38,849 nt of DNA, taken from positions 1 to 38,849 of the IMG/VR virus record IMGVR_UViG_3300037502_002082. One strand, given 5' to 3'. A model generated the notes under the pieces. It made no database searches. It was not told where the DNA came from and saw only the letters and a list, made by a program, of their open reading frames with translations. Shown here piece by piece: positions 2,581-28,164 of this stretch (positions within the stretch are counted from its first letter, which is position 1; the number at the start of each line of letters is the position of its first letter). A program made the position numbers and the translations under genes. This stretch comes from a virus.

Positions 2581-2910
2581 ATGAATCCGTATGAAAAAAT
2601 TAAAGAATTATCTAGGTTAAAAAAGATTTCTATTCGGGAATTAGAGAAACAATTGGGTTATTCGAACGGTTATTTTAGCAAATGGAAAAGCGTTTCTCCT
2701 AATTCTGACGGACTAACTAAAGTTGCAGATTATTTTGGTGTTAGCGTTGATTATCTATTAGGTAGAGAAGAGTTGAAAAAACCTGCTAATTTAACAGTTG
2801 AGGAGGCTTTAGCGTCTGTTATGAGTAGCAACGGAGAGCCGTTAACTGAAAACGATAGAGAAATTTTAAAGGGAATTATTGAAGCATACATTGAAAAAAG
2901 TAAAAATTAA
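2581..2910 (+). CDS. CI-like repressor (short, HTH only)
   Basis: A 109-aa protein with an N-terminal HTH_3 domain (about 5-61): IRELEKQLGYSNGYFSKWK is the helix-turn-helix and VADYFGVSVDYLLGRE the family ending. A short C-terminal segment follows (VEEALASVMSS, LTENDREILKGIIEAY), probably for multimerisation. There is no S24 self-cleavage domain. Paired with the ImmA-type peptidase next door, this resembles the ImmR/ImmA switch of ICEBs1 and many Gram-positive phages, where repressor inactivation is by proteolysis in trans. The ribosome site (AAAGG, 11 bases away) is weak, suggesting low expression. Confidence 0.9.
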   Translation: MNPYEKIKELSRLKKISIRELEKQLGYSNGYFSKWKSVSPNSDGLTKVADYFGVSVDYLLGREELKKPANLTVEEALASVMSSNGEPLTENDREILKGIIEAYIEKSKN

Positions 2911-2923
2911 GTAGGTGTAATGG

Positions 2924-3337
2924 TTGAAGAGAAAAATTAAAGAGATTATTGACCAACTCGGCGTTAACATCGAGGAGCATACAGGGCTTGACGCCGATGG
3001 TCATTACATTGCCATGATTAATACAATTGTTTTAGATGCTCAATTAGCTGGTTTAAAAAGAACTCTAGTGTTATTACACGAGCTCGGCCACGCCTGCTTG
3101 CATCACAATAACCACGAATTATACAACTTAACTGCCTCTATGCACTATAAAATGGAGACTGAAGCAGATTTGTTTATGATTAATAGAATTATGGAACGTC
3201 GATTCAACGATTCTGATTTTGACCCTGACTCTTTTAATTATATAAATTTTTTAGAGAGTTATGAACTGAATCCTAATTATGAATCCGTTGTAAAGGAGAT
3301 GGTTAAGAGTTATTATATGCGCACGAAAATCGTGTGA
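2924..3337 (+). CDS. immA: ImmA/IrrE-type zinc metallopeptidase
   Basis: A 137-aa protein of the M78 family. HELGH at residues 52-56 supplies the two zinc histidines and catalytic glutamate; the METEAD motif at 77-82 holds the likely third ligand. ImmA-type enzymes cleave the cognate short repressor after DNA damage, inducing the prophage. The start is TTG at 2924: an ATG four bases earlier opens a six-codon frame only. GTAGGTG is a modest ribosome site. It lies 13 bases after cI in one operon. A weak hairpin with a following T-run overlaps its stop (about 3321-3349). Confidence 0.9.
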   Translation: MKRKIKEIIDQLGVNIEEHTGLDADGHYIAMINTIVLDAQLAGLKRTLVLLHELGHACLHHNNHELYNLTASMHYKMETEADLFMINRIMERRFNDSDFDPDSFNYINFLESYELNPNYESVVKEMVKSYYMRTKIV

Positions 3338-3720: not shown

Positions 3721-4947
3721 ATGGCTACTTATAGAAAACGAGGGAAAAATTGGGAGTATCGAATAAGGTATGTGGATCCAATAACAGGTCTGAAGGCTGA
3801 AAAAAGCAAAGGTGGTTTTAGGACGAAGGCAGAAGCAGAATATGCAGCATCAGAAGTTTTTATTGATGTGAAGGACGGTCACGGTATTGGCATCAACAAA
3901 GAAATATCCTTTGTTGATTTTAGTAATGCCTGGTTCGAGGAATACAAACCAACGGTTAAAGAAACATCCGTCAGAAGTAGATATTCTTATTTAATGGTCA
4001 TTCAAGAAACATTTCAAAAGTTGAAGTTGAAAAACTTAACTTTATCCATCTACAAAAAGAAAATGGGAGAATTATCTCAGATTTACAGCAAAAACACGCT
4101 CATATCAATGAATCAGATTTGCCAAATGATTGCTAAAAAAGCTGTTAGCGACGGATATTTTAAGGCAAACCCTATCGCGAATTTTAAAATACCTTACTAT
4201 CCAGATCGAGAAGAAGAAATTACGTTTTGGTCACTTGATACCGTGAAAAAATTCGAAGAATACTGTCGTCGTGATATAGCGAAAAAACGTTCGAAAAAGT
4301 TTGCGCATATCCCATTTGAAAAACAACGAGACTTAGCTATGTTTTTTTTAATGTTGTACGGCGGTTTAAGAATTGGAGAGGCATGCGCACTGTCGCCTAA
4401 TGACTATTTCCCAATTACAAGGGAAATTGATATCTCAAAAACCTTAGCATCACCTAAGCAAAACCAAATCAAAAGCTCCTGGAGAATCTTCCCTCCAAAA
4501 ACGAAAAATGCTTATAGAACCGTCCCGTTACCGGAAGTCGCTTATAAGCAAATTGAAATGTGGCTAAAGATGCGAAAAGAATATGTTTTACTCTTCCCTG
4601 AAGCCAAAGACTCTATTTATTTATTTTGTCAGCGGGACGGATCTCCTTTAACTACTAGAGATCTAAGATATCACTTTGACGCCATCGTTAAAAAAGCGGA
4701 TTTACCTAAAATAACCCCGCACAACCTAAGACATACTTATACTGCTTTGCAGATACAAGCTGGTATCGACCCCAAATCGTTACAAATGTTATTAGGTCAT
4801 GCGAGTATTAAAACCACGTTAAATATTTATGCCCATCTCACCGAAGATAAGAAAAGAGAAAACATTTCTCGATTCGACCAAATGCTTAAAAATTCTGAAA
4901 GTGGGGCAAAAGCGGGGCAAGGTGATAAAACCACGTTTTTAGCATAG
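3721..4947 (+). CDS. int: Tyrosine site-specific integrase
   Basis: A 408-aa tyrosine recombinase. Residues 1-50 form an arm-type DNA-binding domain (RKRGKNWEYRIRYVDP..GFRTKAEAE). A SAM-like core-binding domain covers about 62-160 and the catalytic domain about 170-385. Catalytic residues visible: Arg217 (GGLRIGEA), Lys262 region, His334 and Arg337 (HNLRHTY), His360 (LGHAS), Tyr370 (NIYAHL). GAGGTG is six bases before the ATG. It ends in a Gly/Lys-rich tail encoded by a GGGGCAAAAGCGGGGC repeat that recurs beyond the gene near attP. It joins phage and host attachment sites. Confidence 0.95.
   Translation: MATYRKRGKNWEYRIRYVDPITGLKAEKSKGGFRTKAEAEYAASEVFIDVKDGHGIGINKEISFVDFSNAWFEEYKPTVKETSVRSRYSYLMVIQETFQKLKLKNLTLSIYKKKMGELSQIYSKNTLISMNQICQMIAKKAVSDGYFKANPIANFKIPYYPDREEEITFWSLDTVKKFEEYCRRDIAKKRSKKFAHIPFEKQRDLAMFFLMLYGGLRIGEACALSPNDYFPITREIDISKTLASPKQNQIKSSWRIFPPKTKNAYRTVPLPEVAYKQIEMWLKMRKEYVLLFPEAKDSIYLFCQRDGSPLTTRDLRYHFDAIVKKADLPKITPHNLRHTYTALQIQAGIDPKSLQMLLGHASIKTTLNIYAHLTEDKKRENISRFDQMLKNSESGAKAGQGDKTTFLA
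4901..4919 (+). repeat. attP arm repeat, copy 1 (inside int 3' end)
   Basis: GTGGGGCAAAAGCGGGGCA, matching 18 of 19 bases at 5114-5132, 213 bases away. Each copy itself contains two GGGGCA units. Direct repeats flanking a likely crossover region suggest integrase arm sites. Confidence 0.5.
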
Positions 4948-19911: not shown

Positions 19912-20186
19912 GTCAAAATCACCACCGTAGAATTACGATGGAATTTCTTACGGTAAACAGACCGCTCAACTCCATCGTATTCAATCGAACCAAAATTCTT
20001 GTGAACACCTTGAATATGCAACTTAAAAGCATCATCGTTATACTTGCCCCAAATACCCATTTGTTCATCGTTTGAAGCGCTTGTTTTAGCACATGGGTAA
20101 ACCTTCGGAACTTTCGTTACACTACCGCCCAGAGGGCCAGGGACGTGAACCTCTGTGATGAGCGTAACCCGTTTGTTGTAATTCAA
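19908..20186 (-). CDS. Head-tail stopper/adaptor, 92 aa
   Basis: Starts with TTG at 20184-20186, overlapping the stop of the preceding gene (TTGA), with no strong ribosome site of its own, so it is probably translated by coupling. NYNKRVTLITEVHVPGPLGG and a closing KKFHRNSTVVIL strand resemble the small beta-barrel stopper proteins of siphophages. Position between the connector and gp10-like genes supports this. Confidence 0.75.
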   Translation of the reverse strand: MNYNKRVTLITEVHVPGPLGGSVTKVPKVYPCAKTSASNDEQMGIWGKYNDDAFKLHIQGVHKNFGSIEYDGVERSVYRKKFHRNSTVVILT

Positions 20187-20533
20187 ATAAACCGCATAAC
20201 GCCCATACCAGCACGAATTTTAGGCTTGGTATGCTCGTTAAAAAGCTCTAGATATTCATCGAGATAGGAGGTTTCCCACGAATAGGATTTACCTTCCTCG
20301 CTATCAGACGTTGTCCCCTCACTATTACGTTTGTTAAAACGTTTGATAGCAACGTCACGCTGAATATATTCAAATTCAACTGGAATGGCGTGAATCGGAT
20401 CCGTGCCATTCCTTTTTGCGAATTGGTTAAGTGTTGTTAGGATTCGTTGTTGACTATCATCAATAACGAGAGTTAATAACGAATCCTGCAGATTATCTTG
20501 AATACCTAACAATAATTTGATGTCTTCCATCAT
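20183..20533 (-). CDS. Head-tail connector (gp6/gp15-like), 116 aa
   Basis: Helical N-terminal half MEDIKLLLGIQDNLQDSLLT with LVIDDSQQRILTTLNQF fits Phage_connect_1 adaptor proteins, which bind below the portal. AGAGGTGATT precedes paired ATG codons at 20533 and 20530; the first is used here. It follows the capsid gene by 13 bases and overlaps the next gene by four. Confidence 0.82.
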   Translation of the reverse strand: MMEDIKLLLGIQDNLQDSLLTLVIDDSQQRILTTLNQFAKRNGTDPIHAIPVEFEYIQRDVAIKRFNKRNSEGTTSDSEEGKSYSWETSYLDEYLELFNEHTKPKIRAGMGVMRFI

Positions 20534-20546
20534 AAGGAATCACCTC

Positions 20547-21473
20547 TTATCCTGCTGGTTGTGTAACAGGCGCTGCTTCAATCGTTGCTTCTACAACACC
20601 TTCAGGAACTTCCGCAAACAATACTAAAGCGCTCATAAATAACGATTCTAACGTTGCATTAGTCAATGTACGATCACGTGCAATCCCGATTAAGCCTGTT
20701 TCATCTACGAAATCAGCGAACAATCCACCTAAATCAGATGCATTAATATCTAAGTAAGCAAAGACAATGTTTTCAACGGCTGTTGAGTAGACTTTGCCTT
20801 CTGGAATAGCATTTAACACAATCACATTCGCTGTACCTAAGAAATTTTTAAGTAACGTCATGCCAAATACATTTGATGCATCAGCAAGAACTTTAGAATC
20901 ACCTAAATATTCCGCTACATCCATTGGGTTAACGAATGAAACGAAATCTTCACCATCGAACTCTTCGAACGTGTTTAATTTACCCCAAGATTTCGCTAAA
21001 GCTTTTTGTAAACCAACTTCTGAAATTTTTTCAGGTGCAGTAGCTAAGTAAGTAACGAAATTTGTTTTCAATTCGTTTTGGATCCCACGTAAAATTTTAT
21101 TGTCCGCTTTATCAATCGCCATTGAAGCACCATGACGAGCGATTGCTTCTGCTGAAACAATACGACGGCGTTTGCTGAATTTCACTACGTAATCTTTTGC
21201 TTTAGCGTAAGTCGCTTTAGATACTGGAATATCTTCACCTTCAGCAACATCACCTGATTTTAAAGCGGTAGTCCACTTGTACGTTTGAATCTTCATATCT
21301 TTTGATAACGGTTCTTTACGAGTGACTCCTAATAAAGTAAGTAATTCTTTAATACCTACTTCAAATCGGTTAACAAAGTCAATCGACTTAATTTCACCTA
21401 AGTCAGCCATTTTCGTTAAGTCTGGGTTCGCTGCAAAGTATTGTAAATCCATTTTTAATCTATTCTTTTTCAT
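20547..21473 (-). CDS. Major capsid protein (HK97 fold)
   Basis: A 308-aa protein beginning MKKNRLKMDLQYFAANPDL, the usual N-terminal motif of Firmicute capsid proteins. It contains VVKFSKRRRIVSAEAIARHG and a C-terminal domain GLIGIARDRTLTNATLESLF. AGGAGGAAT precedes the ATG. It directly follows the scaffold gene. There is no protease gene, so maturation uses a separate scaffold protein. An N-terminal LQ(Y/F)FA motif is shared with the scaffold. Confidence 0.9.
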   Translation of the reverse strand: MKKNRLKMDLQYFAANPDLTKMADLGEIKSIDFVNRFEVGIKELLTLLGVTRKEPLSKDMKIQTYKWTTALKSGDVAEGEDIPVSKATYAKAKDYVVKFSKRRRIVSAEAIARHGASMAIDKADNKILRGIQNELKTNFVTYLATAPEKISEVGLQKALAKSWGKLNTFEEFDGEDFVSFVNPMDVAEYLGDSKVLADASNVFGMTLLKNFLGTANVIVLNAIPEGKVYSTAVENIVFAYLDINASDLGGLFADFVDETGLIGIARDRTLTNATLESLFMSALVLFAEVPEGVVEATIEAAPVTQPAG

Positions 21474-21486
21474 TTATAAATTCCTC

Positions 21487-22104
21487 CTAAAATAATTCTC
21501 TATTTTGTGCAATTAATCTTTGACGCTCGCTTGAATCTTTTACCTTCATGATGTCAGCTTTCGTTAAAACTTCACCTGTGCCACCGACGCGCGTTTTTGT
21601 TTTGCCTGCTAAACGTTCATTGACTTTTGCTTCAATCGCTTTGTCCCATTCAGCGCGCAACGCTTTAACATCTGCCAAGATTTCTTCTGCTGAATCACCA
21701 ACGATACGATTAGCAAATTCTGCCGGCATACCTTCAGCGACTAACTGCTTGCCTTTTTCGACAAATAATTGATCCTGACGAAACTTTGCTTTTTCAGCTT
21801 CAAACTCTTCTTTTTCTTTTTGAATCAAAGCTTGTTGACGCTCTTCTTCGGATAGTTGAGCTAATCGAGCTGCTTCGCTTTTTTCGGATTCTAGTTTCTT
21901 GGACCAGCTTGCGTGTTTTGATTGGATGATTTTATTAACATCCTCATCATCTTTGAAGCCAAATTTATCTTTGATTGACGCTAGTTGTTCTTCGTTTAAT
22001 TCATCTAAATTGATTGCAGGCGTTTCAGGAGTTTCCGGAGCGCTACCTTCGCCACCCTCAGCAAAAAATTGTAGATGCATTTTCATTAACTGTTTCTTCT
22101 TCAT
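21487..22104 (-). CDS. Scaffold protein (DUF4355)
   Basis: A 205-aa acidic, helical protein. After MKKKQLMKMHLQFFAEGGEG come a disordered Glu/Pro stretch (GSAPETPETPAINLDELNEE) and a long coiled coil (about 75-150), typical of DUF4355 scaffolds that guide capsid shell assembly. The ATG at 22102-22104 follows GGAAGGAG; earlier in-frame ATGs lack a site. A terminator about 85 bases upstream (22190-22214) separates it from the small genes before it. Confidence 0.88.
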   Translation of the reverse strand: MKKKQLMKMHLQFFAEGGEGSAPETPETPAINLDELNEEQLASIKDKFGFKDDEDVNKIIQSKHASWSKKLESEKSEAARLAQLSEEERQQALIQKEKEEFEAEKAKFRQDQLFVEKGKQLVAEGMPAEFANRIVGDSAEEILADVKALRAEWDKAIEAKVNERLAGKTKTRVGGTGEVLTKADIMKVKDSSERQRLIAQNRELF

Positions 22105-22189
22105 TATTGTGACTCCTTCCATATCTTTTAACGTGGATAAATGCTTGCACGTTTCCATAGCTTTTTACGTCATCAATGCTTGGACAAAA

Positions 22190-22214
22190 TAAAAAGACTA
22201 ACAATCGTCAGTCT
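22190..22214 (-). terminator. Terminator upstream of the scaffold gene
   Basis: On the minus strand AGACTGAC, loop GATT, GTTAGTCT (one G-T pair), then TTTTTATTTT. Transcription from the terminase side must partly read through it to reach the scaffold and capsid genes. Confidence 0.65.
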
Positions 22215-22249
22215 GGATTGCTATTTAACGGATAGTTGCGAGATATGGA

Positions 22250-22339
22250 TCACTTCCCTTCTTGCTCCTCCAATTTTTGAAGTTTGTAAGCCATGTTATA
22301 AAACATTAGCAATACATGATTAAGTGGGATTTTTTTCAT
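22250..22339 (-). CDS. Micro-protein, 29 aa
   Basis: Starts MKKIPLNHVLLMFYNMAYKL and ends in a charged helix. The ribosome site AGGAGGTGG eight bases before the ATG is very strong. The gene overlaps the end of the 54-aa gene by 20 bases, and the terminator at 22190 follows. Function unknown. Confidence 0.6.
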   Translation of the reverse strand: MKKIPLNHVLLMFYNMAYKLQKLEEQEGK

Positions 22340-22484
22340 CGGACGCCACCTCCTGCAATTCCTTTTGATAGCAATCAGGCGGTTTCTTAATGATTTTTTG
22401 TATGTAACGAATCGCTAGTTGTTGCTCATTTTTTGTCATGCTTTCGAAAAATTTTAGTGCATCATTTCGGTTTACGTTTTCCAT
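22320..22484 (-). CDS. Small protein, 54 aa
   Basis: Starts MENVNRNDALKFFESMTKNE at the ATG at 22482-22484, after AAAGGAGTGAAC. The open frame extends upstream but without ribosome signals. The body is a helical segment (QQLAIRYIQKIIKKPPDCY). The 22 bases around its ribosome site are identical to those of the next gene upstream (at 22680), showing a duplicated leader. Function unknown. Confidence 0.65.
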   Translation of the reverse strand: MENVNRNDALKFFESMTKNEQQLAIRYIQKIIKKPPDCYQKELQEVASDEKNPT

Positions 22485-22497
22485 GATGTTCACTCCT

Positions 22498-22680
22498 TTA
22501 GTTTTTAACCTCAACTTTAAAGTATCGTTCAAAATTGTCATCAATATCGCTGAGAAACCATTTCTTAAATTTAACACCGCAACTTCTATTCAAAGACAAA
22601 ACAACATAAAACAATCCCCATGTGATTTTATAACGCATTTTCTTTTTAACAGAAATAACAACGCTTGATTTACTTTCCAT
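22498..22680 (-). CDS. Small protein, 60 aa
   Basis: Starts MESKSSVVISVKKKMRYKIT, with a middle hydrophobic patch (WGLFYVVLSLN), and ends in charged residues. The ATG at 22678-22680 has AAAGGAG upstream. It shares its 22-base leader with the 54-aa gene. One of several small accessory genes between the MuF and scaffold genes. Function unknown. Confidence 0.6.
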   Translation of the reverse strand: MESKSSVVISVKKKMRYKITWGLFYVVLSLNRSCGVKFKKWFLSDIDDNFERYFKVEVKN

Positions 22681-22695
22681 GATGTTCACTCCTTT

Positions 22696-22962
22696 TTATT
22701 CAGCTAATTCATAAGTCGCTTCAAAAATATCTGGCTTGCACGGATAAAACTCGCCTTGAACACCTTTGATGATGTAATCGCCTAATTCAGCCCTCATAGT
22801 ACCCTCTAGCGTTTTGATTTCGATGTAAAGAACTTCACCGCCATATTGAGAAAATAAATTAATATCATTCCGATAGCGCCTAACCCAACTATCGGCGACT
22901 TTTAGGGAATCTCTTGTAAACTCCCAAGCTTCAACTACTACTGGTTTCTTTCTGTATTTCAT
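22696..22962 (-). CDS. Conserved phage protein, 88 aa
   Basis: Starts MKYRKKPVVVEAWEFTRDS and ends with the segment GDYIIKGVQGEFYPCKPDIF, which I recognise as a widespread motif in Gram-positive phage proteins of unknown function. AAAGGAG is eight bases before the ATG at 22960-22962, which rules out the GTG nine bases earlier. The fold is probably a small beta-rich domain. Role unknown. Confidence 0.75.
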   Translation of the reverse strand: MKYRKKPVVVEAWEFTRDSLKVADSWVRRYRNDINLFSQYGGEVLYIEIKTLEGTMRAELGDYIIKGVQGEFYPCKPDIFEATYELAE

Positions 22963-22976
22963 TTTTATCACTCCTT

Positions 22977-23159
22977 TTATTGCTCTAATGCAAATCCAGC
23001 AACGTTAATTTGATTGAATACCGCTGAACGTTTTACTTGTGTACTAACGCCAAAGTAATCGAATTTCAATTCATTATCGTTGTTTTCAAGATTTTCAACA
23101 CCTTCAAACTTCAATGTTTCACCTTTTAATAACCAAATAATTAATGATTTTTTATTCAT
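22977..23159 (-). CDS. Small protein, 60 aa
   Basis: Starts MNKKSLIIWLLKGETLKFEG after AAAGGAGGG. It has a beta-rich look (NELKFDYFGVSTQVKRSAVF) and resembles small phage proteins that code for a hydrophobic first strand followed by a LKFxGV turn. It lies in the accessory block before the scaffold gene. Function unknown. Confidence 0.65.
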   Translation of the reverse strand: MNKKSLIIWLLKGETLKFEGVENLENNDNELKFDYFGVSTQVKRSAVFNQINVAGFALEQ

Positions 23160-23172
23160 GATAATCCCTCCT

Positions 23173-23376
23173 TTAATTTCTGCTATACCTATCCATCAAA
23201 GCAAAAGTCCTGTCTCTTTCGTCCGCTAACATTTTGTATTCGTTAGGCGATAACGTGTTAACCTTACGCTCTAAAACCCTGTCAAGCTCCTTTGAGCGAC
23301 TGTACAACGCCGAACGTACTAACTCTTTGTCACTTTTAAGGCAAACGCCATCTTGCACTACTGTGATACGTGACAC
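23173..23376 (-). CDS. Small charged protein, 67 aa
   Basis: A GTG start at 23374-23376 follows AAAGGAGC at eight bases. The protein is helical and charged (RSKELDRVLERKVNTLSPNE, then ERDRTFALMDRY). It is the first gene after the terminator at 23398-23435. Function unknown. Confidence 0.65.
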   Translation of the reverse strand: MSRITVVQDGVCLKSDKELVRSALYSRSKELDRVLERKVNTLSPNEYKMLADERDRTFALMDRYSRN

Positions 23377-23397
23377 TTAATCAGCTCCTTTCGCGTA

Positions 23398-23435
23398 TAA
23401 AAATAGCACTCAATCATTTTAATGACTAAGTGCTA
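23398..23435 (-). terminator. Terminator after the MuF partner gene
   Basis: A long hairpin TAGCACT..AGTGCTA with further inner pairing (TCAT/ATGA), followed on the minus strand by a run of T. The partner gene's last codons lie in the stem. Confidence 0.75.
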
Positions 23436-23624
23436 CAAAGCTTTTAGATATTCAACTATTTTTACTTCTTTCAGTTCCTTTGACTTAGAAATCAATTCTT
23501 TGGTAATGTCGATATCTTCTATCATCAACCTACCGGACAATTGATGGTGCAACTCATAGATGGCAGCAATGGAACCTTTGTGCTGCTCTAAGTTGCTTGG
23601 GATATAAAGCTCAATCATTTCCAT
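23433..23624 (-). CDS. Small protein overlapping the MuF gene, possible immunity partner
   Basis: A 63-aa protein, MEMIELYIPSNLEQHKGSIA at the start and helical and acidic/basic in the second half (ITKELISKSKELKEVKIVEY). It overlaps the 3' end of the MuF gene by ten bases and is followed at once by a terminator. Translation is likely coupled; its own ribosome site (GTAGGTG) is modest. Because the MuF protein carries a toxin-like metallopeptidase domain, this could be its immunity protein. No homology is claimed. Confidence 0.6.
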   Translation of the reverse strand: MEMIELYIPSNLEQHKGSIAAIYELHHQLSGRLMIEDIDITKELISKSKELKEVKIVEYLKAL

Positions 23625-25366
23625 TTCTTAACACCTACCAATCTATATAATGCGGTCATTGCATGTTGGCCAATCATTTCTTGGTTACCGACAAGTGATT
23701 TTCCGTCAACGATATTTCTAACAAATGAATCATAGTCCTCTTGAATATATGAATCGTGTTGTTTGAACTGCGGTGTATTTTGATAAATCATATCTAATAC
23801 TTCAGAACGATTCTCCTTCAACTCTTTAACATAATTATCCTTGATATAGCCGTAAAAATCAAACGTTACGTTGTTCAAATCAGAATGAATTTCACGCCAA
23901 TCCGCTGTCCGTTGTTCTTCGTTAAAACGATACTTCATAGCATTCTTACCAAAGTCGATAACCGAAGAACTATTCTCGAATCCTTTAATCTTTTGCAATC
24001 GTGGTAAATTAACAGACAAGTACTTAGGATATGCTGGCATTAATTTTTCATCGTTGATCAATGACATTTGATAGTGCGAAGCAACTTCTGTCATTGTTTC
24101 TTCAATGGATAACCAATCGTCAAAACTGAATTTTCCACGTTCTTTTGAAACAGGGACTTCTAGTCCTTGCATTTTCGAATGATACGCTTCGTGTAACGCT
24201 GTTTTGAATTGATAACTAGAAGAACGAGAATCATTTGATTGTAAAACAAATTCAGAAATGCTTGCTTTATCACCAACTCCAAAACCTTGAAAACCATTTT
24301 GACCACGGGCGCTTATTTGTCTAATTGAAACAGGAGCGTCTACTTCATATTCTGAAAGTAATTCCTTAGCGAATGTTCTTCTATCACCTTCAGCTTTATC
24401 ATAAATATTTTTGACGTCAACTTGTTCAAAGTCTAATTCTTCCTCTTCCTCTTCCTCATAACCAAGTTCACTATCATCTGGCACAATCCCTGAACGACAA
24501 TTAACATGAAATGGCGGTGCAGTTTTACCTGGTTGATAATCCACAAAAAGAAAAGTTTCATCATCAGCTTTAATTTTTTTACAAATATCAGTCGTTCGTT
24601 CATCCAAATGGACCAATATTTTATACTTCGTCAATCCAAATTCCATGTAACGCTTAGCTGCTGCATTGTTAATGATATTTGTTCCGTCGGTGCGAATTAT
24701 TGCTTCTGAACGGGAACGTGCCACGTTGTACTTTTTACGTAATTCACGAGCCATATCAGCAGGACCTTGCCCACGAATGAACCCGTTTTTTAGCGTTTGT
24801 TTTAAATCGTCTGCCAAAGTATCGGTATTCCCCCACAAACTACTTGAATAGTTTTTGCCATTAAATGGCGTCTTAACTAATTGTTCTAACGCTGGGCGGT
24901 TTAACGTACTGGAGGAGTTACCGCCGGATATTTTTTTGTACACGTGTTGCGCTGTCTCTTTCAAATAGCTGTTAAATGACTTCTGAAGTGTTTGGTTCAT
25001 TTTCCCTAGTTGCCATTCAAGATTAAGCTCCAACGCTTCAAGGCGTGTTACCTTACCGGCTCTATACTGTTCGTTCAAACGCTTCAATAAATCAGGGTCT
25101 TTTTCAGCTTGCTTGAAGTACTTTTCGGCATTGGCACGATAATCAGATAAATCTTCACGTGTGAGTCGTTTTTGCGCTTCCTGCATCGTGATTTGATTAT
25201 CCTTAGCGTACTGTGCATAAAAGGCGTAAATCTCTTTATGGATGTTCTGACGGCCTTCTGTGTATATGGATTGCAACTCGTCAAAGAAGTCGATATCCGT
25301 ACGATCTACGTAAGCCATGATTTCGTCGGTTCGTTTTTTCCAGTAAGCACTACTCTGCAACTTCAT
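23615..25366 (-). CDS. Minor head protein, MuF domain fused to a C-terminal metallopeptidase
   Basis: A 583-aa protein. Helical N-terminus about 1-190; MuF domain about 190-296 with the motif HLDERTTDICKKIKADDETF (253-272) and PPFHVNCRSG (284-293), as in SPP1 gp7/Mu F minor head proteins. An acidic linker of Glu residues (304-310) leads to an unrelated C-terminal domain with HEAYH at 392-396 (HExxH zinc motif) and a possible third ligand in EETMTEVASHY (422-432). MuF proteins enter the capsid with the portal. Such C-terminal extensions are known from MuF-type polymorphic toxins of temperate phages. It overlaps the portal gene by 17 bases. Confidence 0.88.
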   Translation of the reverse strand: MKLQSSAYWKKRTDEIMAYVDRTDIDFFDELQSIYTEGRQNIHKEIYAFYAQYAKDNQITMQEAQKRLTREDLSDYRANAEKYFKQAEKDPDLLKRLNEQYRAGKVTRLEALELNLEWQLGKMNQTLQKSFNSYLKETAQHVYKKISGGNSSSTLNRPALEQLVKTPFNGKNYSSSLWGNTDTLADDLKQTLKNGFIRGQGPADMARELRKKYNVARSRSEAIIRTDGTNIINNAAAKRYMEFGLTKYKILVHLDERTTDICKKIKADDETFLFVDYQPGKTAPPFHVNCRSGIVPDDSELGYEEEEEEELDFEQVDVKNIYDKAEGDRRTFAKELLSEYEVDAPVSIRQISARGQNGFQGFGVGDKASISEFVLQSNDSRSSSYQFKTALHEAYHSKMQGLEVPVSKERGKFSFDDWLSIEETMTEVASHYQMSLINDEKLMPAYPKYLSVNLPRLQKIKGFENSSSVIDFGKNAMKYRFNEEQRTADWREIHSDLNNVTFDFYGYIKDNYVKELKENRSEVLDMIYQNTPQFKQHDSYIQEDYDSFVRNIVDGKSLVGNQEMIGQHAMTALYRLVGVKKWK

Positions 25367-26852
25367 CTTCGATCACCGGCCTTCTTACTGGTGGTGTTTC
25401 TCCAACATCTTGATTAATTCTCTCCATCTCGACTTCGGCATCGATACCAGTGACAGTTGAAAGAATTTCAAATAACGTTTCGTCAGATACTTGACCCACT
25501 AATTGAGCAGCAAGCCCAACAATTTCAGCGTCTGACTTCGGCACATTGGCAGTAAAGACAATGTTTGTTTCGTTGATGTCATCATAGGCCGTTGAATCAT
25601 TGCCTTTGATACGCCACACGTTGACCGCTAATCGCAAACGACGCATTAAGCCTTTTTCATAAAGTCTTTGCTGCATAACGCGTCGGTTGTCTGACCCCAT
25701 TAATTTATATTTCATGGACTCCCCAGATGCATTACCTGAAAAGTTTGCATCTAAAGTATCTGGTGTAAAGGTAAAGCGTAAAATATCATTCACCAATCGT
25801 TGCTTATACTTTTCAGCGCCTTCTGTATCGTATTGCTTAACGACGTATTTTGCATCAGGTTGGGAGCCGTTCGGATTTGGATTGTCATCTAAAATCATGA
25901 TTCTTGCTCGCTTAAACGCCAAAGAGACCGCTAAACGAGAGTTAGGGACAATGTTACCATCCGCATCAATATCGTTTTCGGCAGTGCCTGTATAAGGATT
26001 GCCCGTTACCATCAAAATGGCATCTAAAGAATCCTGTTGGAAGTTAGCCAATTCAGATTGTGATAAGTCGTAAGCGTCAATCGAATCAAGAACCGGCTCA
26101 TAAGCACCTGTGCGATCCTCGTTGTTTGAATACTCATTGATTGGTACGCCATCAAACCAAACCTCGTCATAATCTTTTAACTTCAAACCGCTGATGTCTT
26201 GGTTATTATTGACGTACATATAAATCATGTCATTCGTGTAAACATTAATGAAATCTTTTCGAACCCCATCACCATAATCAATTGAGTAATAATAAACGCC
26301 AAATAATGATTTGTTATTAGTAGTGTCATCGTAAACAACAAATGTTTTTTCGGGATCTAATTTATTTAACTTAACGCTTGCTTTACCATCGATTAAATCA
26401 ACCGTTAGCAATTCGTAAGCACGACCGTAAATGGATAAATCCGTCTTAATTAAAATATTGTGATACGCTTCGTTGTTTTCGCGGTTAAACGAATCAATTT
26501 GCTCTTGAAGCTCCGCCACCTCATTCTTGTATTGAACGGGTTGACCAAGCATGTAACCTTGCTCAAATATCGTAATGTACCTAGCAAAGTCACTAGCAAT
26601 TCGATTATCTGCTGCATATTCGTCTGTCTTAGCTGGACGGTATTTGATATTGTTATCAGCTAATGCATATCTTTTTAATTCTTTTAACCGTGCTACTTGT
26701 TCATTTTTGTGACGATTAACAAACTTTTCAAGTCTTGTAATCCATATTTCTGATTCAAAATCGATAGCGTTAAAGTCTTCTTGTGCCATACGATAAACGT
26801 CGTTTGCTTTTTCGTGGTAACGCCCACCTCTTAAAAATGTTACTTTATTCAC
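25350..26852 (-). CDS. Portal protein (SPP1 gp6-like)
   Basis: A 500-aa portal. The GTG at 26850-26852 follows AAAGGGGTG; longer frames run into the terminase gene. Motifs include DNRIASDFARYITIFEQGY, a DPEKTFVVYDDTTNN strand region, and SNNEDRTGAYEPVLDSIDAY followed by QSELANFQQDSLDAILMVTG. The portal forms the dodecameric DNA gate at one capsid vertex. It lies between the large terminase and MuF genes as usual and overlaps the latter by 17 bases. Confidence 0.93.
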   Translation of the reverse strand: MNKVTFLRGGRYHEKANDVYRMAQEDFNAIDFESEIWITRLEKFVNRHKNEQVARLKELKRYALADNNIKYRPAKTDEYAADNRIASDFARYITIFEQGYMLGQPVQYKNEVAELQEQIDSFNRENNEAYHNILIKTDLSIYGRAYELLTVDLIDGKASVKLNKLDPEKTFVVYDDTTNNKSLFGVYYYSIDYGDGVRKDFINVYTNDMIYMYVNNNQDISGLKLKDYDEVWFDGVPINEYSNNEDRTGAYEPVLDSIDAYDLSQSELANFQQDSLDAILMVTGNPYTGTAENDIDADGNIVPNSRLAVSLAFKRARIMILDDNPNPNGSQPDAKYVVKQYDTEGAEKYKQRLVNDILRFTFTPDTLDANFSGNASGESMKYKLMGSDNRRVMQQRLYEKGLMRRLRLAVNVWRIKGNDSTAYDDINETNIVFTANVPKSDAEIVGLAAQLVGQVSDETLFEILSTVTGIDAEVEMERINQDVGETPPVRRPVIEDEVAE

Positions 26853-26865
26853 TTCGCACCCCTTT

Positions 26866-28164
26866 CTAGCCAAAGAAGAATTTGGCTGCTTCTGCTCTTT
26901 TTCCTGCGTCACTGCCCTTGATTTTGAATATCGCATTACTCAAGGCGTAACGAATCGCATCAATTGTGTGATTGTAAGTATCTACTGGTTTATTCAGATA
27001 CTCATTTGTCTTCTTGTCTTTTTGCCATGTATAGTTATCAAACTCCTCGATTGTTTTGAAGCACCGCTCGTCGATTATTATCTTGTATTGTTGAATAAAT
27101 TGGATCCCTGCCATGACAGAATCGGGACCTTTTTTTACTGGAATAATTCGGCTGATACCGTCTAAACGAATCTCTTCAATTGATTTCTTCTCAGCACTAT
27201 CAGCGTTAATTTCTTCTTTCCCGTATCCTAAATCTTTTATCGTTTGGGAAATCTCATTGTTGAGCATGTGTTTCTTTACGTATTCTTCCATGATGTAGAT
27301 TGTCTTTGTCGAATCATCAAGCTTCACATGCATGAAAGCAGAGGGATCATTAACGTAACCAAAGTCCAGTCCGAAGAAGGACGGTAAACGCTTTAGATCT
27401 TCCTTGTTTAACAACCTCTTCTCATAAGTTGGAAAAACGAGCTTATCAAGCGTCGCGAACTCACCAAGTGCATAAATTCTATAATACGCTGGGTTACGTT
27501 CCGCTAATTCCTCAATTGTTTCTCTTACTTCCTCGTCAAGGAATCGATTGTTTTTGTAGCTGGTATGATGAATTACTACTCGTTTAGGATTTAATTTAAT
27601 TCCTTCTGCAAAGAAATGCTTAAAAACCCAGTTAAGTTTGCTAACTGGGTTGAACATTAAAAATATTTGTCTTTGCTTATGTTTTTTCTCACGCAAACGC
27701 AAAGTTAACTGTGTATAATCTTCTAAAGTGAATTCCGTAGCTTCTTCAACGACCGCATCAGAAATCCCTTTAACTGATTTAATCTTTTCCGGGTCGTCCA
27801 TTCCTTTAAAAATAAATTCCGCACCATTCGGCAATGTGATTCGATAGTCCGTCATATTTACTTTGCAACGATCTAAAATACCTAGGTCTTCTAAGCACGC
27901 TTTAACGTCTGCAAAAATGGAATCTTTAATCGTGCTGCCGACTTTACGTAAAAAAAGAATGCGTCTAGGATGTTTCCAATCCTGACAAGCTTTGATAACA
28001 ACTTTTTGAACAACCCCGTGTGACTTTCCGCTTGAAGCGCCGCCGTAATGGATCTCGGTAAATTTAGAATAATCAAAAAGAACGTTATAAATATGTTTAT
28101 TGAAAACCTTTGAAGGAAAAGGGAATTCAAGAATGATTTTCGGACGTTTCTTAGTCTTCGTCAT
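26866..28164 (-). CDS. terL: Terminase large subunit (SPP1/pac type)
   Basis: A 432-aa protein of the Terminase_3 family. ATPase domain: Walker A GASSGKS (42-48) and Walker B AVVEEATEF (137-145). Nuclease domain with the acidic residues Asp267 (GLDFGYVNDPSAF), Asp322 (ADSAEKKS) and Asp402 (IDAIRYAL). The ATG at 28162-28164 lies within the end of terS, 14 bases of overlap. It packages DNA into the prohead and cuts it. The family type suggests headful packaging from a pac site, which agrees with the permuted sequence. Confidence 0.95.
   Translation of the reverse strand: MTKTKKRPKIILEFPFPSKVFNKHIYNVLFDYSKFTEIHYGGASSGKSHGVVQKVVIKACQDWKHPRRILFLRKVGSTIKDSIFADVKACLEDLGILDRCKVNMTDYRITLPNGAEFIFKGMDDPEKIKSVKGISDAVVEEATEFTLEDYTQLTLRLREKKHKQRQIFLMFNPVSKLNWVFKHFFAEGIKLNPKRVVIHHTSYKNNRFLDEEVRETIEELAERNPAYYRIYALGEFATLDKLVFPTYEKRLLNKEDLKRLPSFFGLDFGYVNDPSAFMHVKLDDSTKTIYIMEEYVKKHMLNNEISQTIKDLGYGKEEINADSAEKKSIEEIRLDGISRIIPVKKGPDSVMAGIQFIQQYKIIIDERCFKTIEEFDNYTWQKDKKTNEYLNKPVDTYNHTIDAIRYALSNAIFKIKGSDAGKRAEAAKFFFG

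What the first reader, a model, noticed from the sequence alone, without database searches (positions are those of the whole stretch)
23404..25366. MuF head protein fused to a putative metallopeptidase, with an overlapping partner gene and own terminator
The minor head protein (583 aa) keeps a MuF domain to about residue 296, then an acidic linker, then about 270 residues with HEAYH at 392-396 and EETMTE at 422-427, a zinc-metallopeptidase layout. MuF proteins enter the virion, so the enzyme could be carried inside the head or ejected with the DNA. MuF-toxin fusions are known in temperate phages; a metallopeptidase cargo is less common. The 63-aa gene overlaps the fusion by ten bases and ends in a terminator, the geometry of a toxin-immunity pair. 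The neighbouring small gene block could hold further partners.
Basis: partly seen in the sequence, partly recalled or inferred. Interest (0 to 1): 0.75.

Follow-up and report, generated by a model that had tools for sequence, protein, structure and literature searches.

The report
Phage head protein carrying a metallopeptidase
A bacterial virus has fused a probable protein-cutting zinc enzyme onto a protein of its particle, always followed in relatives by a tiny partner gene, which looks like an enzyme delivered into bacteria together with its own inhibitor.

Summary
The 583-aa gene (23615-25366, minus strand) is a MuF minor head protein (to residue ~301), an acidic linker and a ~265-aa C-terminal domain. 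That domain has no Pfam, NCBIfam or PDB sequence match. Sixteen other loci (about a dozen independent) carry it, all fused to MuF proteins. H392, E393, H396, E427 and Y446 are invariant in the aligned set. AlphaFold2 gives a confident zincin topology (pLDDT 91.9, pTM 0.91). Profile searches reach essentially only ArdC/IrrE/SprT-type gluzincins outside the family. The third ligand is most likely E427, not E422/E423. Every relative with downstream sequence has a 59-72 aa ORF at -22 to +1 nt from the stop, usually followed by a terminator. These partners form one family; the window's 63-aa protein is only a marginal match to it. Related phages carry no extension, a Tox-MPTase4 or other C-termini at the same position. 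The relative TP84_08 was found in TP-84 virions. This is a MuF polymorphic effector with a new gluzincin cargo family and a conserved small partner. MuF-metallopeptidase fusions were already reported (20% of known MuF toxins). Injection, proteolysis, toxicity and immunity are inferred.

The parts
24464..25366 (-). MuF (Phage_Mu_F) minor head domain, residues 1-301 of the 583-aa protein
   Evidence: Pfam PF04233 at 187-292, E=2.2e-12; 72% identity to the complete 300-aa MuF protein of Enterococcus phage phiFL2A over residues 3-301
24413..24463 (-). acidic linker, residues about 302-318 (Glu-rich)
   Evidence: sequence; lies between the end of MuF similarity and the modelled domain
23615..24412 (-). 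C-terminal gluzincin-like metallopeptidase domain, residues about 319-583, plus stop codon
   Evidence: conserved in 16 other MuF-fused loci; AlphaFold2 pLDDT 91.9, pTM 0.91, zincin topology; profile match to ArdC-type metallopeptidases
24179..24193 (-). HEAYH (residues 392-396): predicted metal ligands H392 and H396, catalytic base E393
   Evidence: H392, E393 and H396 invariant in A10; in helix 383-397 of the model
24086..24103 (-). EETMTE (residues 422-427); E427 is the predicted third metal ligand
   Evidence: E427 invariant, E422/E423 replaced by Asp in several relatives; E427 aligns with the glutamate-helix Glu of ArdC-like proteins
24029..24031 (-). Y446, invariant Tyr, possible counterpart of ArdC Y255
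   Evidence: invariant in A10; aligned with the Tyr of GYxAxW in the ArdC-like profile; role of ArdC Y255 proposed in PMC7213743
23433..23624 (-). 63-aa partner protein, three-helix, overlapping the fusion gene by 10 bases
   Evidence: an equivalent 59-72 aa ORF at -22 to +1 nt in every relative with downstream sequence; marginal family match; model pLDDT 88.3
23403..23436 (-). intrinsic terminator overlapping the partner's stop codon
   Evidence: 15-bp stem and T run; terminators at the same place in most relatives
22195..24464 (-). block without similarity to phiFL2A between matching MuF and scaffold regions: metallopeptidase domain, partner, terminator and small genes
   Evidence: blastn of window 20000-27000 against phiFL2A; protein similarity sets the upper boundary

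Best explanation
This is a MuF-family polymorphic effector. The MuF domain places the protein in the phage head at the portal. The C-terminal domain is a gluzincin-type zinc metallopeptidase (ligands H392, H396, E427; base E393; probable stabilising Y446) that is packaged and delivered with the DNA to cut a bacterial protein in the recipient cell. The overlapping small gene makes a three-helix protein that binds the enzyme and holds it inactive in the producing or lysogenic cell (immunity protein or inhibitor). Supported here by sequence and model: fusion, modular exchange, catalytic signature, zincin topology, strict linkage to the partner. Shown by others for a relative: presence in the virion. 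Inferred: catalysis, injection, target, inhibition.
For: Catalytic residues invariant. Confident model with helix, three strands, HExxH helix, Glu helix. Profile matches outside the family are ArdcN plus M78/IrrE/SprT/DUF6782 gluzincins; hhalign to three of these, probability 94%, E 8.8e-8, aligns both motifs. Six of 12 members weakly match Pfam MPTase-PolyVal, best E 0.004. BFVD Foldseek: two phage minor capsid proteins at TM 0.85-0.86, then sub-threshold hits rich in IrrE, SprT, lethal-factor and zincin entries. Domain conserved where the MuF part has no detectable similarity: modular. The same MuF lineage carries nothing, Tox-MPTase4 or other C-termini in other phages. Partner ORF in every case with sequence; strong partner matches among 400 Bacilli genomes only beside the two enzyme genes. 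TP84_08 found in virions with at least two peptides (PMC5889276). MuF toxins: 89.4% followed by a small ORF against 25.5% for short MuF (PMC5576092).
Against: No activity, toxicity or binding has been measured. No PDB match by sequence or by Foldseek at E<=0.001. The window's 63-aa protein matches the partner family only marginally: 9.3 bits, 4 of 2000 shuffles score higher. The cassette also occurs in TP-84, whose temperate status is unclear, which fits kin competition less well. [quoted passage not shown]
Confidence: 0.6

Rival explanations
1. The peptidase is a head-assembly or self-processing enzyme: it cuts MuF, scaffold or another virion protein during maturation, and the small protein is its chaperone or timing inhibitor.
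For: The gene sits in the head module; P0001 and one A10 member match phrog_595, named 'head maturation protease'; autoprocessing is proposed for metallopeptidases of polyvalent phage proteins (PMC5512222).
Against: phiFL2A, with about 70% identical portal, MuF and scaffold/capsid regions, has a 300-aa MuF and no such domain, so the shared head plan does not need it. TP-84 has a separate putative prohead protease. The domain swaps between unrelated MuF proteins and alternates with toxin domains such as Tox-MPTase4.
Confidence: 0.15
2. The injected peptidase is an anti-defence or host-takeover enzyme that cleaves a host defence or regulatory protein as DNA enters, rather than a toxin against competitors; the partner restrains it during assembly.
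For: Nearest characterised relatives by profile are ArdC-type antirestriction proteins and IrrE, which cleaves a repressor; occurrence in TP-84, studied as a lytic phage.
Against: ArdC protease activity was dispensable for antirestriction; the swap with Tox-MPTase4 and a constant small partner follow the toxin-immunity pattern. These do not exclude it.
Confidence: 0.2
3. The C-terminal domain is a structural head or decoration domain with a dead or incidental HExxH.
For: It is attached to a structural protein, and no solved structure matches significantly.
Against: All five predicted catalytic residues are invariant at about 30% overall identity, and the model has zincin topology. Phages with the same head plan lack the domain.
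Confidence: 0.04

Closest known systems
MuF polymorphic toxins of temperate phages (Jamet et al. 2017, PMC5576092)
   Same: N-terminal MuF domain beside the portal gene, exchangeable C-terminal enzyme, small ORF just downstream; 20% of 191 such toxins carried a metallopeptidase domain
   Different: This C-terminal domain is not matched convincingly by Pfam or NCBIfam models and has its own conserved partner family; relatives include phages not clearly temperate
MuF-Tox-MPTase4 (PF15640), for example Streptococcus phage Javan570
   Same: Metallopeptidase-family toxin domain at the same position on a related MuF protein, with an overlapping small ORF
   Different: No detectable similarity between the C-terminal domains; Tox-MPTase4 model is 132 positions against about 265 residues here; the partner is of another family
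ArdC metalloprotease domain and the IrrE/M78, SprT and MPTase-PolyVal gluzincins
   Same: HExxH helix, glutamate-helix Glu and a following Tyr align by profile
   Different: No ArdcN DNA-binding domain; MuF fusion instead; long helical C-terminal part; weak Pfam scores only
Minor head protein TP84_08 of Geobacillus phage TP-84 (phrog_4611)
   Same: Same C-terminal domain (34% identity), overlapping 69-aa partner, protein detected in virions
   Different: MuF part of another subfamily (PF06152); C-terminal domain not recognised as a peptidase in the passages read

Membership tests
MuF polymorphic toxin family | MuF domain next to the portal gene | tested here: met
   PF04233 E=2.2e-12; SPP1-type portal gene immediately upstream
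MuF polymorphic toxin family | variable C-terminal domain exchanged on a constant MuF part | tested here: met
   MuF parts 47-72% identical while C-termini are absent or unrelated
MuF polymorphic toxin family | small ORF (<150 aa) directly downstream | tested here: met
   63-aa ORF overlapping by 10 bases; same arrangement in relatives
MuF polymorphic toxin family | temperate phage | tested here: inconclusive
   window carries an integrase-like gene (3721-4947) and a repressor-like gene (2581-2910), judged by eye from the translations; not tested with family models
MuF polymorphic toxin family | toxic C-terminal domain delivered to bacteria | not testable with these tools
   needs expression and infection experiments
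Gluzincin metallopeptidase | HExxH on the active-site helix | tested here: met
   invariant; residues 392-396 in helix 383-397 of the model
Gluzincin metallopeptidase | Glu ligand on the next helix | tested here: met
   E427 invariant, in helix 415-435
Gluzincin metallopeptidase | residues converge on one metal site | tested here: inconclusive
   secondary structure agrees with the zincin core, but model coordinates were not readable and Foldseek to PDB gave no significant match
Gluzincin metallopeptidase | metal-dependent proteolysis | not testable with these tools
   needs protein
MPTase-PolyVal (PF18818) | Pfam match of the domain | tested here: not met
   6 of 12 members match only weakly, best E 0.004; the window member does not match
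Tox-MPTase4 (PF15640) | match to the family model | tested here: not met
   not among the families listed for any member of A10
Toxin-immunity pair | dedicated partner gene, always linked | tested here: met
   partner at every enzyme locus with sequence; strong genome hits only beside the enzyme
Toxin-immunity pair | window partner belongs to the conserved partner family | tested here: inconclusive
   9.3 bits; 4 of 2000 shuffles higher
Toxin-immunity pair | partner binds and neutralises the enzyme | not testable with these tools

The most novel reading that the evidence does not exclude
A previously undescribed family of virion-packaged gluzincin peptidases, spread across unrelated MuF head proteins in Bacillota phages, that is injected to cut a specific host defence or regulatory protein and is kept silent during assembly by a dedicated 60-70 aa inhibitor.
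Probability: 0.25. Interest if true: 0.7.

Novelty: new variant of a known kind. Interest (0 to 1): 0.5.

Why it matters
If right, it adds a distinct peptidase cargo and a candidate inhibitor family to the few known enzymes that phages carry in their heads. One relative is a cultivable phage whose protein is already known to be in the particle, so proteolysis, delivery and immunity can be tested. It also links MuF effectors to the ArdC/IrrE group, where the purpose of the peptidase in mobile elements is open.

Tried and rejected
PDB sequence searches found nothing credible. Foldseek to PDB gave no significant match for enzyme or partner. No plasmid hit. The first genome scan found nothing. Three other partner-profile hits were rejected: two lie in a Cys-rich small gene beside housekeeping genes, matching mainly its last helix, and the third has in-frame stops. 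The phrog_115 and phrog_595 matches of the full protein extend into the C-terminal region, but the window's C-terminal domain alone does not match them. A head-maturation role was considered and down-weighted because phiFL2A lacks the domain. Many relatives were first missed because the peptide patterns of the scans were too narrow; sub-alignments fixed this.

Full report
Observation. On the minus strand the window encodes a 583-aa protein at 23615-25366 and a 63-aa protein at 23433-23624, overlapping by ten bases. HEAYH is at 392-396 and EETMTE at 422-427. Pfam finds Phage_Mu_F at 187-292 and an SPP1-type portal in the gene before it. A terminator with a 15-bp stem overlaps the partner's stop codon.

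Setting. The genome is a virus record of 38,849 bases. Its head region resembles Enterococcus phages phiFL1/phiFL2, and it carries integrase-like and repressor-like genes, so it is probably temperate. In phiFL2A the MuF protein is 300 aa long and 72% identical to window residues 3-301, and it stops there. DNA similarity resumes at the scaffold gene. The metallopeptidase domain, partner, terminator and following small genes form a block that phiFL2A lacks or replaces with about 0.4 kb.

The domain. Residues 310-583 alone match no Pfam family, no NCBIfam family and no PDB sequence. tblastn finds the domain in Geobacillus phages TP-84 and PK2.1 and Bacillus phage vB_BpsM-61, each time at the end of a MuF protein. 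Scans of IMG/VR and genomes added Paenibacillus lactis DSM 15596, an unnamed Bacilli genome and a dozen viral contigs. HExxH is present in all 17 loci, window included. In the 12-row alignment A10, H392, E393, H396, E427 and Y446 are invariant at about 30% identity. E422/E423 become Asp in several relatives, so E427 is the likely ligand. Some scans used patterns over the HExxH region and would miss degenerate copies. The tblastn search, the genome profile searches and one pattern scan were not so limited, and they too found only intact copies of the full domain.

Fold. AlphaFold2 on A10 gives pLDDT 91.9 and pTM 0.91, with helix, three strands, a helix holding HExxH, a helix holding E427, then a helical C-terminal part. 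This is the core order described for zincin-like metallopeptidases of polyvalent proteins (PMC5512222). I could not read coordinates to measure the metal site. Foldseek finds no significant PDB match. Against viral models it finds two phage minor capsid proteins at TM 0.85-0.86, then sub-threshold hits with many IrrE, SprT, lethal-factor and zincin names.

Relation to known enzymes. Profile searches of Bacilli genomes reach, outside the family, proteins with an ArdC N-terminal domain and an M78/SprT/DUF6782-like peptidase, plus two weak hits without HExxH taken as noise. hhalign to three of these gives 94% probability and E 8.8e-8, aligning HExxH, the Glu and a Tyr; they were picked because the profile had already hit them, so this is not independent. 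ArdC coordinates metal through H201, H205 and E229, and Y255 was proposed to stabilise the substrate (PMC7213743). Pfam MPTase-PolyVal matches half the members weakly. I conclude: a gluzincin, in a family of its own.

Modularity. The domain is about 30% identical between proteins whose MuF parts show no detectable similarity, for example window against L007, L041 and L046. In the other direction, MuF proteins 47-72% identical to the window's carry no extension (phiFL2A), a Tox-MPTase4 domain (Javan570) or other unrelated C-termini. This is the polymorphic-toxin pattern. Jamet et al. described MuF toxins, 20% of 191 with a metallopeptidase domain (PMC5576092). The kind is therefore known; whether this family was in their count is unknown, as their supplement was out of reach.

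Partner. Every relative with downstream sequence has a 59-72 aa ORF starting 22 bases before to 1 base after the MuF stop. In leave-one-out tests all except the window's score 20-84 bits, each above its own 2000 shuffles (maxima 9.4-15.9); the window's scores 9.3, below 4 of 2000 shuffles, yet it is the best real ORF of the window. In 400 Bacilli genomes the strong matches lie only beside the two enzyme genes. None of seven MuF loci lacking this enzyme has a convincing partner match. Twelve of 13 loci have a terminator-like hairpin within 100 bases of the partner's stop that few or no random windows of the locus equal. The window partner is modelled as a three-helix protein, pLDDT 88.3, with no PDB match. 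Position, linkage and size suit an immunity protein or inhibitor, but also a chaperone.

Virion. [quoted passage not shown] Which part the peptides cover was not seen.

Mechanism. Best supported: packaged by MuF, delivered with DNA, cuts a host protein, restrained by the partner. Packaging rests on the TP-84 relative, catalysis on residues and fold, delivery and inhibition on analogy. An anti-defence role is the main rival; an assembly role is less likely because phiFL2A does without the domain.

Noticed in passing
window 2581-3337 (+): Repressor-like HTH gene followed by a 137-aa ORF with HELGH (ImmA/IrrE-like): a second probable HExxH metallopeptidase in the same phage, in the lysogeny region.
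   Followed up: no
L057 1980-3338 (Streptococcus phage Javan570): MuF protein with a Tox-MPTase4 C-terminus in which the usual first His of HExxH seems to read Glu (EELFH), perhaps a degenerate toxin.
   Followed up: partly
L055, L056, L027: Closely similar unnamed C-terminal extension on MuF proteins of Streptococcus-type phages; the two Javan phages carry a near-identical 80-aa downstream ORF and L027 a similar overlapping one: another candidate MuF effector-partner pair.
   Followed up: partly
L029: Reading frame carrying a PBECR4 nuclease domain, an ArdC N-terminal domain and a gluzincin in one polypeptide (polyvalent protein).
   Followed up: no
L052 and L053: A Cys-rich small protein in front of housekeeping genes matches the partner profile mainly in its last helix (LKKIGENKI); taken as chance or convergent.
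   Followed up: partly
window 22696-23376 (-): Three small genes between the partner and the scaffold gene; two match phrog_419 and phrog_4960, function unknown.
   Followed up: no
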